DNA of 44,504 nucleotides, taken from IMG/VR virus record IMGVR_UViG_3300013131_000079, positions 1-44,504 of that record; one strand, 5' to 3'. The notes under the pieces were generated by a model that had not been told where the DNA came from, did not search any database, and saw nothing but the letters and a program-made list of their open reading frames with translations. The DNA comes from a virus. This document shows, piece by piece, positions 19,840 to 25,122 of the stretch (position 1 is its first letter; every line of letters begins with the position of its first letter). The translations under genes and the position numbers were made by a program.

Positions 19840-22074
19840 ATGACTGCGGGCACTGAGACCAGAAAAAGGTTTAACGAGATTCTGGAAGCCTCGCGCACTC
19901 AGGATCGAAGTAACCAATCTGCGACAATGGTTGTTTTAAGCCATTTACAGCAGATGACTCTTCTTATGATTAAGAAGGGTCTGACCTTTTACTGCGATCA
20001 GGATACTTATAAAAGCCGCACTCGATTTTTAGAGGATGTAATTAAATTAAATAAATTAGATATTCGTTTTCCTTCAATTATTCGGAATTTTTTGATCGAT
20101 GGCTGTGGATTGTTTTACTTTCGCCCAGATCCAAAATTAAAATATCAGATTTATTTTTTCAATAAAAATCAATACAGGGTTTACCACGATTTAAACGGTG
20201 AAGTTGACGAAGTAATCATTATTTATAGTTATAAAGTTAAAAACGCTAATTTAGGCTTACCTAGTACTACCACAGGTCAGAACAAACGATATGTTCGTTT
20301 ATCTATTACTGCAGATGAAATAAGTGAAGTTGAAACTGATACTGAACTAAGTTTTGATTTAGAGCCGGGTGCTGTTTTAACACCGGCTAAAAAACGTCCT
20401 AATAATTTAGGTTTTATTCCTGCTGTAGAAGTTTTAAACAAGCCAAACGCTAGTGGGACTGAGGGCGAAGGTGAGTTTGATCCTTTTATGGAGCAAATAG
20501 TGCTTCATGATGCACTTCAACGTAATATTGCAAAAAATATTGAATTTTTTGGTAATCCAACGTTAATTAGTTCACGTCCTCGCAGCGATTTAGTTGAAGC
20601 AAGTGATAGCCAGACTACTTTTAGACCAACTATTAGTAGTCAAAGTGGTTTTGCTGGTGTAGATAGCCCTTCTACACGAGTTAGTGAACCGTTTGGTTCT
20701 TCTATGGGCGGTGGTTTGCGCGTACCTCGGATTATTGCCAACGTCGAGCCTTCGGATCGCGTTGGTTATATGACCCCAGATCCTGTAAATGGAGATATGA
20801 ATCGGTATTCCTTACTTCTTCGTGAAGAAATACGAACTGCTTTAGGCGGTGTTGATGAAATTTCAATTTCAGCTGGTGCTACAGCTACCGAAGTTAAAGG
20901 TTTGATGGGTCGTGCTCAAGCCACGGCTCTTCGAAAAAATAAATCTTTTCTTGATTACGGTTTTAATCGTCTTTTGGAAATGATGATTTATCACCAAGAA
21001 ACTATTTTTAGAGAGTCATTTATAGCCGCAAGCGGTTTAAAACAACCTAAGCCTCCTTTAGAGCAGACACCAGAAACAATTGATAAGTTTCAGACTGCAA
21101 ATTTACGTTTTGAAACAAAACTTAATCAGACAGTTCAGATTGCTCTGACTGAAAATAAAGTTCCTCGTGGAGTTATCGGTTTACCTGAAGATGGAGATAG
21201 GACTGTTTCGTATCGTTTTCAAGGAGATGTTTACGAGGACACAGCTTATGACGTTAACCAGAAATCTATTGTTGTTCGTAATTTACAGGAATTAGGCGTC
21301 GATAGTATTGAAGCATTAAAGTTTTTATTCCCTGAAAAAACTGATTCTGAACGAGCAGAAATGTTGAAGGGATTTCCCTTCCGCATGGTGCAACAAACAC
21401 AATCTGCGATGCAACAATTTCTGGTATTATTAACTCAGATGTTGCAGTCTCCTCATCCGCTTGCGCCTAACCAACCGCTTGCGGCAGACCCTAGACTGAA
21501 TATCACTCCGCTCTTATATAGAACATTCGACCACCTCGCGGAAGAATTAACCTACTCGGGTAGCTATGAGCCAGCAGATCCAAGCTTCAATCCCGAGCCC
21601 GGTCTCCCCGGCGGTAGCCCCGACGGTAACCTCAGACCAGGGCTCAACCGCCTACCCACAGTGGGTGGCGCAAACCTCTACCCCGGCGGTAGCTTCGGTA
21701 CCTACAGCCCAACCGCCATCGCAGGCAACACAGGCTACGGTCCCTTCTACCAACAACCAGTTCAGCCCGTCAACGTCGCAGTTCTCCCCCAACAATCCGT
21801 GGGAAGCAGCGATGGGTTCGCTGGAACGGGTTTTATCCCAGATCAATACTCCGTCCCCCAGCCAGGGTCAACAGTCGCCTTACCAGGCGGCTCAGCAACA
21901 GGTTACTCAACAGAGCAATCTGAGTTCACAGGTCCAACCCTGGGCTTACCAGGCACAGCAGGTAGCGCAGACATTGCCTACCAACGTCTTACAAACCCAG
22001 AATTCCTCGCAGACTTCTACGGACCCGTCCAACGGTCCCCAAGGTCTAAGCGTCGCAACTCAAGCCGTCGTTAA
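19840..22074 (+). CDS. Portal protein
   Basis: 744 residues, ATG at 19840. The body (about 1-570) has the portal pattern: 'LQQMTLLMIKKGLTFYCDQD', 'IIRNFLIDGCGLFYFRPDPK', 'QIYFFNKNQYRVYHDLNGEV', then 'LLREEIRTALGGVDEISISA' with 'TATEVKGLMGRAQATALRKN', and a long stem helix region. The last 170 residues are Gly/Pro/Ser/Asn-rich and basic at the very end ('RSPRSKRRNSSRR'). This tail is encoded by the same DNA as the first 170 residues of the next gene in a different frame. Size and place after terL support the call. Confidence 0.85.
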   Translation: MTAGTETRKRFNEILEASRTQDRSNQSATMVVLSHLQQMTLLMIKKGLTFYCDQDTYKSRTRFLEDVIKLNKLDIRFPSIIRNFLIDGCGLFYFRPDPKLKYQIYFFNKNQYRVYHDLNGEVDEVIIIYSYKVKNANLGLPSTTTGQNKRYVRLSITADEISEVETDTELSFDLEPGAVLTPAKKRPNNLGFIPAVEVLNKPNASGTEGEGEFDPFMEQIVLHDALQRNIAKNIEFFGNPTLISSRPRSDLVEASDSQTTFRPTISSQSGFAGVDSPSTRVSEPFGSSMGGGLRVPRIIANVEPSDRVGYMTPDPVNGDMNRYSLLLREEIRTALGGVDEISISAGATATEVKGLMGRAQATALRKNKSFLDYGFNRLLEMMIYHQETIFRESFIAASGLKQPKPPLEQTPETIDKFQTANLRFETKLNQTVQIALTENKVPRGVIGLPEDGDRTVSYRFQGDVYEDTAYDVNQKSIVVRNLQELGVDSIEALKFLFPEKTDSERAEMLKGFPFRMVQQTQSAMQQFLVLLTQMLQSPHPLAPNQPLAADPRLNITPLLYRTFDHLAEELTYSGSYEPADPSFNPEPGLPGGSPDGNLRPGLNRLPTVGGANLYPGGSFGTYSPTAIAGNTGYGPFYQQPVQPVNVAVLPQQSVGSSDGFAGTGFIPDQYSVPQPGSTVALPGGSATGYSTEQSEFTGPTLGLPGTAGSADIAYQRLTNPEFLADFYGPVQRSPRSKRRNSSRR

Positions 22075-22498
22075 TCACTTCGGTATTGAAGCACCTGGAA
22101 TTTTAAATCAGTATGCATGTGCTCTCGAGGACATGCTGATGGATCAAGCCGGGCGTATGGATTCTCTTACTGAGCGCCATAATGCCATGGAGACCATCCT
22201 CACAAATCCCGATCATCTAGCTAATTACACTGATCGGTTCTTTACTGAGGTCGTCCCTGTAGACATTGATTCTGACGTGCCTGCTGGTAGTCAAACAGCA
22301 GCACAAGCTTATCAACCTCGCTACGACATGCCTGCTCCTCCTGCTAATGCCGGTGGTGCTCAGGGCGTAGTTCCTCAACAACAATGGGAAGCTTTTAGCG
22401 AAGTTATGAATCGTTCTCCCGAAAACGCTTGGCGTTATTTAAGTCAGATGGGTCCGGAGGCGCTTCGCAGTAAGCTCTTATTTATGGACGCTGCTTAA
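21566..22498 (+). CDS. Candidate scaffold protein, overlapping portal by 509 nt
   Basis: 310 residues, ATG at 21566, in the +1 frame relative to portal. An in-frame TAA at 21548-21550 closes the frame upstream, so this is the first possible ATG; there is no good ribosome-binding site. Residues 1-170 are Gln/Ser/Pro/Thr-rich and disordered. About 171-230 are helical and acidic ('EAPGILNQYACALEDMLMDQ'), and the C-terminus is a short helical module 'QQQWEAFSEVMNRSPENAWR'. Disordered, helical and acidic composition between portal and capsid genes fits a scaffold. A terminator follows at 22519. Confidence 0.72.
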   Translation: MSQQIQASIPSPVSPAVAPTVTSDQGSTAYPQWVAQTSTPAVASVPTAQPPSQATQATVPSTNNQFSPSTSQFSPNNPWEAAMGSLERVLSQINTPSPSQGQQSPYQAAQQQVTQQSNLSSQVQPWAYQAQQVAQTLPTNVLQTQNSSQTSTDPSNGPQGLSVATQAVVNHFGIEAPGILNQYACALEDMLMDQAGRMDSLTERHNAMETILTNPDHLANYTDRFFTEVVPVDIDSDVPAGSQTAAQAYQPRYDMPAPPANAGGAQGVVPQQQWEAFSEVMNRSPENAWRYLSQMGPEALRSKLLFMDAA

Positions 22499-24006: not shown

Positions 24007-25122
24007 ATGTTTATCGATAATGATTTTCCGAAGATTCTTGGTGCCGAGCTGTACCGTCCGCACCCCGCATACATCGTTGAGATGGCTGCGGAGCCCGTGG
24101 TTGTCCATGATTTTTCTAAGCAACCTGGTCAGACTGTACAACTGGATCGTTACCGTTTCTTCGGTAATCCTGGCTCCAAAGAATCTCGCGAGCGCACTGC
24201 TGAGCAGACCATCGGTACTGCTAACAGCCGCAACATTGTGAAAGATAAGGTGCTGGTTACTCTTAAGGAGTACACCGGACCTGCCGATCCTGCTGATCCG
24301 ACTCAGCCGAGCACCTTTAAGATTGCTCGCGAGACTCTGATCACTGCACAACGCTTACTGCTGGATACGGGTAACCTCACCACCTTCCACCAGTCGATCG
24401 GTAGCCTCACCCTATTAGATGACTATCGCCGTTGGCGCGATCGGGTGTTCATCAACGAACTCCTGAAAGCTGTTTCCAAAGGTGAGTCTTCTGACACCCA
24501 AGGTGGTTACTACTTCCCTGGTGACCTGGCCACCGGTTCGCTGACCTACACCAACGCCGAGCAAGCTAAGTTCGACGTTAAGGATGACTTGCTGCGTGTG
24601 GTGAAGAGCCTGCGTAAGCGGAACACTCCTACCTTCCAGGATGGTTTCTATCGCTGCGTTTGCGATCCCACCTTCCTGATGCACCTGCGTCAGAACAGCG
24701 ACTTCCGCGAAGTTGCTCGTTACCCTGGCAACGGTCAGATCAACCCTCTTATGTCCGGGATGCAGCCTAACGCTGCCCTGTACATGGGTCAAGGGTTCGG
24801 CCAAGCCACCTTTGTGGCCGGTGAGCCGATTATGCCCACGGGCTTTGTGTTTGAAGGCGTGCGCTTCTTCGAAAGCACCAACATGCCTACTCAGACTCAG
24901 ACCGCGACCATCGCATCTACCGCCGCTTCTTACAACGCAGCTATCGGTATCTTCTTTGGTCCTCAGTCCACCGGCGTTGGCATCGGCGGTAACAACGCTC
25001 AGGTGCTGCTCAACAACAACGACGACTTCAGCCGTTTCATCATGATGATTTGGAGCCTGTACGCAGGTTTTGAACTTCTGAACGCTGACTTCGTTACCGT
25101 TGCCTACTCTTTCGACGCCTGA
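24007..25122 (+). CDS. Major capsid protein (N4 gp56-like)
   Basis: 371 residues, ATG at 24007. An N-terminal arm ('HPAYIVEMAAEPVVVHDFSK') leads to 'RYRFFGNPGSKESRERTAEQ' and a strand 'KVLVTLKEYTGPADP'. A helix 'DDYRRWRDRVFINELLKAVS' resembles the spine helix of HK97-fold capsids of the N4 gp56 type. 'FYRCVCDPTFLMHLRQNSDF' and a hydrophobic C-terminal domain follow. Codon use is rich in NNC and CTG, unlike the AT-rich neighbours, as expected of the most highly expressed gene. A partner gene follows 14 nt later with a strong ribosome-binding site. Confidence 0.85.
   Translation: MFIDNDFPKILGAELYRPHPAYIVEMAAEPVVVHDFSKQPGQTVQLDRYRFFGNPGSKESRERTAEQTIGTANSRNIVKDKVLVTLKEYTGPADPADPTQPSTFKIARETLITAQRLLLDTGNLTTFHQSIGSLTLLDDYRRWRDRVFINELLKAVSKGESSDTQGGYYFPGDLATGSLTYTNAEQAKFDVKDDLLRVVKSLRKRNTPTFQDGFYRCVCDPTFLMHLRQNSDFREVARYPGNGQINPLMSGMQPNAALYMGQGFGQATFVAGEPIMPTGFVFEGVRFFESTNMPTQTQTATIASTAASYNAAIGIFFGPQSTGVGIGGNNAQVLLNNNDDFSRFIMMIWSLYAGFELLNADFVTVAYSFDA

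What the first reader, a model, noticed from the sequence alone, without database searches (positions are those of the whole stretch)
21566..22074. Portal and scaffold-like genes overlap by 509 nt in different frames
The portal frame runs to 22074 while the next gene opens at 21566 in the +1 frame. Both frames stay open for 169 codons. The portal side becomes Gly/Pro/Ser-rich; the other side is Gln/Ser/Pro/Thr-rich. In the downstream frame I looked at codons before Asn, Asp, Glu and AGY-Ser (about twenty sites). None ends in T, which would create a stop in the portal frame, although T-ending codons are common in this genome. The frame breaks at the first GTT-AAT. The DNA is also notably C-rich here. 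This looks like real overprinting, and one tail was probably created de novo over the other.
Basis: partly seen in the sequence, partly recalled or inferred. Interest (0 to 1): 0.75.

Follow-up and report, generated by a model that had tools for sequence, protein, structure and literature searches.

The report
Portal and scaffold-like genes share DNA
In a widespread family of cyanobacterial viruses, the same roughly 500 to 680 letters of DNA encode both the end of the DNA-entry (portal) protein and the start of a probable shell-building (scaffold) protein, and both readings have been kept by selection across very divergent relatives, although the reference genome annotation misses it.

Summary
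The window is an IMG/VR contig of the Synechococcus phage S-EIV1 lineage. Its portal gene (19840-22074) and the next gene, ORF2 (21566-22498), share 509 nt in different frames. Of 195 relatives holding both genes complete, with portals down to about 42% identity, 194 have the same +1 overlap (476-677 nt, always 2 mod 3). The exception carries a deletion or assembly fault that truncates both proteins.

Selection acts on both frames. In two clades, portal-synonymous sites inside the overlap evolve at 0.12-0.38 of the portal-core rate; ORF2-synonymous sites there evolve at 0.20-0.74 of the rate downstream. Both proteins keep family-wide motifs in the shared DNA, and the portal keeps a basic C-terminus although its stop codon moves. 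Most relatives outside the window's clade carry an SD-like motif before the ORF2 start.

Predicted structures: a portal with a disordered tail, and an ORF2 with a disordered N-terminal arm plus C-terminal helices. Scaffold function is inferred from position and helical character, not shown. GenBank S-EIV1 starts ORF2 after the portal stop. The portal tail may be the newer reading, but direction is unsettled. Unexplained: synonymous sites 60-90 codons upstream of ORF2 are also constrained.

The parts
19840..22074 (+). Portal protein gene, 744 aa; residues 1-571 hold nearly all predicted structure, 566-712 disordered tail
   Evidence: phrog_20475, phrog_64, phrog_104; AlphaFold model matches solved portals, best E 3e-10
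21566..22498 (+). ORF2, scaffold-like protein, 310 aa
   Evidence: Open frame; family-wide alignment; AF2 model disordered arm plus C-terminal helices; lies between portal and major capsid genes
21566..22074 (+). Dual-coding overlap: portal tail and ORF2 residues 1-169, +1 phase
   Evidence: Conserved in 194 of 195 relatives; synonymous sites suppressed in both frames
21556..21580 (+). Nearly invariant ORF2 start region TCGGGTAGCT-ATG in the window clade; most eiv-group relatives have AGGAG here instead
21386..21565 (+). Stretch of the portal gene upstream of ORF2 with slow synonymous sites and no second open frame family-wide; function unknown
   Evidence: weak RNA-structure signal in the window clade only
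21797..21844 (+). ORF2 residues 78-93, the one predicted helix in the overlap, with the conserved NPW..A motif (77-82)
21856..21873 (+). Portal-frame motif PxPGST (residues 673-678), kept family-wide
21961..21975 (+). Portal-frame motif GSAD(L/I) (residues 708-712), G708 and D711 kept family-wide
22012..22071 (+). Basic last 20 residues of the portal (net +6 here)
   Evidence: All 156 distinct tails have net charge of at least +3, mean +5.7; null +2.2
22052..22492 (+). ORF2 C-terminal helical part, residues 163-309, almost all outside the overlap
24007..25122 (+). Major capsid protein gene (context)
   Evidence: phrog_1357, E 1e-22; 69.5% to S-EIV1

Best explanation
The overlap is a genuine, old, dual-coding segment. 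One ribosome reads the portal through a long Gly/Pro/Ser-rich disordered tail with a basic end. Another initiates inside the portal gene at a conserved ATG (or GTG) and makes the scaffold-like ORF2, whose first 169 residues (a Q/S/P/T/A-rich flexible arm with one short helix) come from the same DNA in the +1 frame. Both shared segments are predicted disordered, so each tolerates the other's constraint. By analogy with other tailed phages the portal tail would face the capsid interior and the ORF2 arm would lie in the scaffold core of the procapsid, where the two may touch. The most economical origin is that the portal gene lost its original stop and extended over the leader and 5' part of the scaffold gene. 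SHOWN by computation: both frames open and selected; start site and overlap conserved; portal fold. INFERRED: translation of both, scaffold function, location inside the procapsid, direction of origin. The confidence below is for dual coding under selection in both frames; for ORF2 being the scaffold I put about 0.7, and for the portal tail being the newer reading about 0.6.
For: Overlap in 194 of 195 complete relatives, portal identity down to about 42%, length always 2 mod 3. 4-fold sites: portal frame 11.2 steps in core against 3.4 in overlap (win) and 12.2 against 2.1 (eiv); ORF2 frame 10.0 beyond the overlap against 2.8 in it (win) and 7.9 against 4.6 (eiv); p from 8e-6 to 2e-34. Motifs kept in both frames. 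Basic portal C-terminus kept while the stop moves. Conserved start with an SD-like motif in most eiv-group and about half of tmed-group sequences. Both shared segments are mostly disordered in AF2. Outgroup A-HIS1 portal has 460 aa and only a 4-nt overlap with its next gene. In the eiv clade the last third of the portal tail is freer than ORF2 (portal pos1 5.2, pos3 2.1).
Against: No protein or ribosome data. ORF2 matches no scaffold family or fold. The window clade has no clear SD before ORF2. Codon usage departs from the genome in both shared frames (CAI 0.38 and 0.40), so it does not say which is older. The A-HIS1 comparison is remote: hhalign probability 96 over residues 30-384 only, and the C-terminal alignment is about at the 1-in-100 level. 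A-HIS1's next gene is not an ORF2 homologue as far as PHROGs show, so the outgroup says little about ORF2.
Confidence: 0.9

Rival explanations
1. Only one of the two frames is really coding in the overlap. Either ORF2 starts after the portal stop, as GenBank annotates S-EIV1, or the portal ends earlier and the tail is a meaningless read-through; the other frame is open by chance or because of the C-rich composition.
For: C-rich codons lower the stop rate; own-codon permutation leaves a frame open in 8.7% (ORF2) or 1.3% (portal) of trials in the window. GenBank annotation of S-EIV1.
Against: 194 of 195 relatives keep both frames open. Synonymous sites of each frame are suppressed. Motifs conserved in both frames. 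SD-like motif before the upstream ORF2 start. The +2 control frame averages 4-6 stops.
Confidence: 0.04
2. The slow synonymous change in the overlap reflects an RNA or DNA element (promoter, packaging or regulatory structure), not a second protein.
For: The 60-90 codons before ORF2 are also constrained with no second frame; RNAalifold z values of -3 to -4.5 in parts of the overlap.
Against: In the overlap the constraint follows codon positions of both frames: portal pos1 (ORF2 pos3) is faster than in the core while portal pos3 (ORF2 pos2) is slow. Indels keep both frames. ORF2 stays open and its protein motifs are kept. An element may exist in addition.
Confidence: 0.03
3. ORF2 is made as a portal-ORF2 fusion by programmed +1 frameshifting within the overlap, not by fresh initiation.
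For: ORF2 is in the +1 frame and the window clade has no clear SD.
Against: Start codon conserved as ATG or GTG at one place with an SD-like motif in other clades, and a +1-frame stop just upstream in most. No systematic search for slippery sites was made.
Confidence: 0.04
4. The dual coding is real but the direction is opposite: the ORF2 arm is the newer reading, made by moving the ORF2 start upstream into a pre-existing portal tail.
For: The ORF2 conserved core lies almost entirely beyond the overlap; in the window clade the two frames are about equally constrained.
Against: The outgroup portal lacks a tail; in the eiv clade the end of the portal runs over conserved ORF2 sequence and is the freer reading there.
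Confidence: 0.3

Closest known systems
Synechococcus phage S-EIV1 (KJ410740), same gene pair
   Same: Same portal family (47% identity) and the same +1 overlap, 554 nt, with ORF2 homologous at 34.6% over its C-terminal half
   Different: GenBank annotates ORF2 only after the portal stop (about 133 aa instead of 325), so the overlap is not recognised there
phiX174 gene B, internal scaffolding protein encoded within gene A in another frame (general knowledge, not tested here)
   Same: A scaffolding protein encoded in an alternative frame of another gene
   Different: Small ssDNA virus; fully nested; the other gene is a replication protein, not a portal; unrelated proteins
Lambda Nu3 scaffold nested in gene C (general knowledge, not tested here)
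   Same: Scaffold made from an internal start inside another head gene
   Different: Same reading frame, so not a second reading of the DNA
Ordinary same-strand overlaps of viruses (surveys PMC8903798, PMC7017920)
   Same: +1 same-strand overlap
   Different: Median +1 overlap is 14 nt (PMC8903798) and 84% of viral overlaps are under 50 nt (PMC7017920); here 476-677 nt kept across a divergent family
Acaryochloris phage A-HIS1 ORF063 portal (FN436268)
   Same: Same PHROG 20475; hhalign probability 96
   Different: 460 aa, no long tail, only a 4-nt overlap with an unrelated next gene

Membership tests
Same-strand dual-coding overlapping genes | Two long frames open over the same DNA in related genomes | tested here: met
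   194 of 195 complete relatives
Same-strand dual-coding overlapping genes | Synonymous sites of each frame constrained by the other | tested here: met
   Both clades, both frames
Same-strand dual-coding overlapping genes | Both products are made | not testable with these tools
   Needs proteomics or ribosome profiling
Portal protein of tailed phages | Sequence family match | tested here: met
   phrog_20475 (E 3.5e-163, itself labelled virion structural protein), phrog_64 and phrog_104 portal protein
Portal protein of tailed phages | Portal fold | tested here: met
   Foldseek to SU10, 80alpha, T7, SPP1 and other portals, best E 3e-10
Portal protein of tailed phages | Ring of about 12 subunits at one vertex | not testable with these tools
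   Experiment needed
Scaffolding protein of tailed phages | Gene between portal and major capsid genes | tested here: met
   Portal 19840, ORF2 21566, capsid 24007
Scaffolding protein of tailed phages | Elongated, mainly helical, with flexible parts | tested here: inconclusive
   AF2 mean pLDDT only 54.7; helices 163-227 and 270-309
Scaffolding protein of tailed phages | Match to a known scaffold family or fold | tested here: not met
   No usable PHROG, Pfam or PDB match. Not all scaffolds share a family, so this is not strictly defining; ORF2 is filed as scaffold-like only
Scaffolding protein of tailed phages | Present in procapsids, absent from virions | not testable with these tools
   Experiment needed

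The most novel reading that the evidence does not exclude
The overlap is kept because the two co-encoded disordered arms work together: the portal's basic tail and the scaffold's N-terminal arm, made from the same stretch of mRNA, bind each other and help seed the procapsid at the portal. The overlap would then be a device for coupled production and co-evolution of portal and scaffold, not merely a relic of how the genes met.
Probability: 0.15. Interest if true: 0.8.

Novelty: new variant of a known kind. Interest (0 to 1): 0.6.

Why it matters
Long out-of-frame overlaps are usually associated with small viral genomes. Here phages with genomes of roughly 80 kb (S-EIV1 is 79 kb) keep 476-677 nt of dual coding between two head genes across a widely sampled family. 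It offers a natural experiment, with hundreds of alignable sequences, for methods that estimate selection on overlapping frames. It also shows that the reference annotation cuts off more than half of ORF2, and it raises a testable question about portal-scaffold co-evolution.

Tried and rejected
Composition artefact: rejected by the comparative data. Sequencing frameshift: rejected, since many contigs agree and all overlap lengths are 2 mod 3. Programmed frameshift fusion: judged unlikely, but no systematic search for slippery sites was made. Codon-usage dating of the two frames: uninformative. Scaffold identification through PHROGs, Pfam, PDB sequences and Foldseek: nothing usable. RNA structure in the upstream constrained stretch: weak signal in the window clade (z -3.1; 9 compensatory pairs against shuffled mean 2.1, maximum 7); none in the eiv clade; in the small eiv2 group 9 such pairs against shuffled mean 3.1, maximum 7, but z only -1.1. 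Outgroup search with A-HIS1 found nothing in viral contigs and only itself in phage records. The original S-EIV1 paper, looked up by a DOI recalled from memory, is not held.

Full report
WHAT WAS CHECKED. The window carries a portal frame 19840-22074 (744 aa) and a second frame 21566-22498 (310 aa, ORF2), same strand, +1 phase, 509 nt shared. The missing T is the same fact as the open portal frame, so it is not extra evidence. In a single genome the openness is only moderately unlikely once the C-rich codons are allowed for: 8.7% for the ORF2 frame and 1.3% for the portal frame with own codons permuted; 0 of 300 and 0 of 2000 with core or genome usage.

WHAT IT IS. The window is a 44.5-kb virus record. 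Among phage records only Synechococcus phage S-EIV1 matches well: portal 47%, major capsid 69.5%, ORF2 34.6% over its C-terminal half. The portal matches phrog_20475 and, weakly, general portal families. The AlphaFold model of the whole protein (mean pLDDT 61.6) finds portals of SU10, 80alpha, T7, SPP1 and others; its residues 566-712 are below pLDDT 50. ORF2 is predicted disordered to residue 77, helical 78-93, disordered to 162, then helical 163-227 and 270-309, at low overall confidence (54.7). It lies between portal and major capsid genes, which together with the helical prediction is why I call it scaffold-like; no family or fold search supports the name.

CONSERVATION OF THE OVERLAP. Two protein-seeded scans of viral contigs, one genome-contig scan and one DNA-pattern scan gave relatives in several sub-lineages: the window clade, the S-EIV1 clade, a group about 56% identical to S-EIV1, and further, partly marine, groups around L164 and L240. 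In this report 'win', 'eiv', 'eiv2' and 'tmed' are working names for these. Portal identity to the window goes down to about 42%. Of 195 with both genes complete, 194 show at least 470 nt of open +1 frame. From the chosen start codon the range is 476-677 nt and every one is 2 mod 3, so indels have kept both frames. The exception, L236, has an internal out-of-frame loss that truncates both proteins, a mutant or an assembly fault. S-EIV1 itself has a 554-nt overlap, but GenBank starts ORF2 after the portal stop. The loci are related, not independent, so the count is not a probability.

SELECTION ON BOTH FRAMES. Parsimony steps on trees built from the non-overlapping parts show third-position change in the portal frame falling from 9.2 per site in the core to 3.2 in the overlap (window clade, 47 sequences) and from 10.1 to 2.2 (S-EIV1 clade, 53). 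ORF2 third positions fall from 8.6 beyond the overlap to 2.7 within it, and from 7.3 to 4.1. At 4-fold sites the portal-frame ratio overlap/core is 0.23-0.38 and 0.12-0.22 (95% bootstrap), and the ORF2-frame ratio overlap/rest is 0.20-0.37 and 0.44-0.74. The +2 frame, a control, averages 4-6 stops in the same stretch. Across 32 diverse phages both proteins keep residues in the shared DNA: portal G574, Y576, P585, P615, PxPG (673-676), G708 and D711; ORF2 P15, P60, NPW (77-79), A82, Q100, S104. The last 20 portal residues are basic in all 156 distinct tails (mean +5.7), although the stop codon moves; holding ORF2 and redrawing its codons gives +2.2.

START OF ORF2. The chosen start is ATG in 188 and GTG in 6. 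AGGAG occurs within 20 nt upstream in 92 of 107 eiv-group sequences and 6 of 13 tmed-group ones, GAGG in 12 more eiv-group ones; the window clade has none of the SD words tested (74 of 74) but a nearly invariant start region. A stop in the +1 frame sits just upstream in most relatives, arguing for fresh initiation rather than a fusion.

ORIGIN. The nearest outgroup found, Acaryochloris phage A-HIS1, belongs to the same PHROG; its portal is 460 aa with a 4-nt overlap to an unrelated next gene. Profile comparison aligns residues 30-384. The C-terminal comparison is suggestive only: mean score 37 against 29.5 plus or minus 2.3 for shuffles, the best of 100 shuffles reaching 37.5. In some family members, not the window itself, it places the A-HIS1 end near the LxG about 60 codons before the ORF2 start. 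In the S-EIV1 clade the portal end runs over conserved ORF2 sequence, and there the portal reading is the freer one. This favours extension of the portal over the scaffold gene, but codon usage cannot tell, and I keep the opposite direction open.

UNEXPLAINED. Portal synonymous sites are also slow in the 60 codons before ORF2 (3.1 against 11.2, and 3.8 against 12.2; p<1e-12), and out to about 90 codons in the S-EIV1 clade, where no second frame is open family-wide. First and second positions are slow there too, so the protein is conserved as well. RNA structure tests give a weak signal in one clade. A promoter, a leader or an RNA element are possible.

SETTING. Surveys put the median +1 viral overlap at 14 nt (PMC8903798) and 84% of viral overlaps below 50 nt (PMC7017920). 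In P22 the scaffold forms a dome on the portal and contacts neighbouring portal subunits (PMC12005531), which makes a portal-tail / scaffold-arm contact here conceivable but untested. I found no description of this overlap in the papers held; the original S-EIV1 paper could not be read.

Noticed in passing
L002:9317-10468 (S-EIV1 KJ410740 about 60859-62010): The S-EIV1 major capsid gene (383-aa open frame on +, matching the window capsid at 69.5%) is annotated in GenBank as an antisense hypothetical ORF plus a C-terminal piece.
   Followed up: partly
window:21386-21565: Synonymous sites of the portal gene are strongly constrained upstream of ORF2 in two clades without a second open frame family-wide.
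   Followed up: partly
window:21366-21381: Palindrome GAAGGG-ATTT-CCCTTC inside the portal gene, near the start of the constrained stretch; predicted as a conserved hairpin in the window clade.
   Followed up: partly
window:6602-6683: tRNA-Leu with anticodon TAA encoded by the phage.
   Followed up: no
window:24007-25122: The major capsid gene has a C-rich third position (0.39) unlike the T-rich genome (C 0.14), perhaps codon bias of a highly expressed gene.
   Followed up: no
L236: One relative carries an out-of-frame loss inside the overlap that truncates both proteins; mutant or misassembly.
   Followed up: partly
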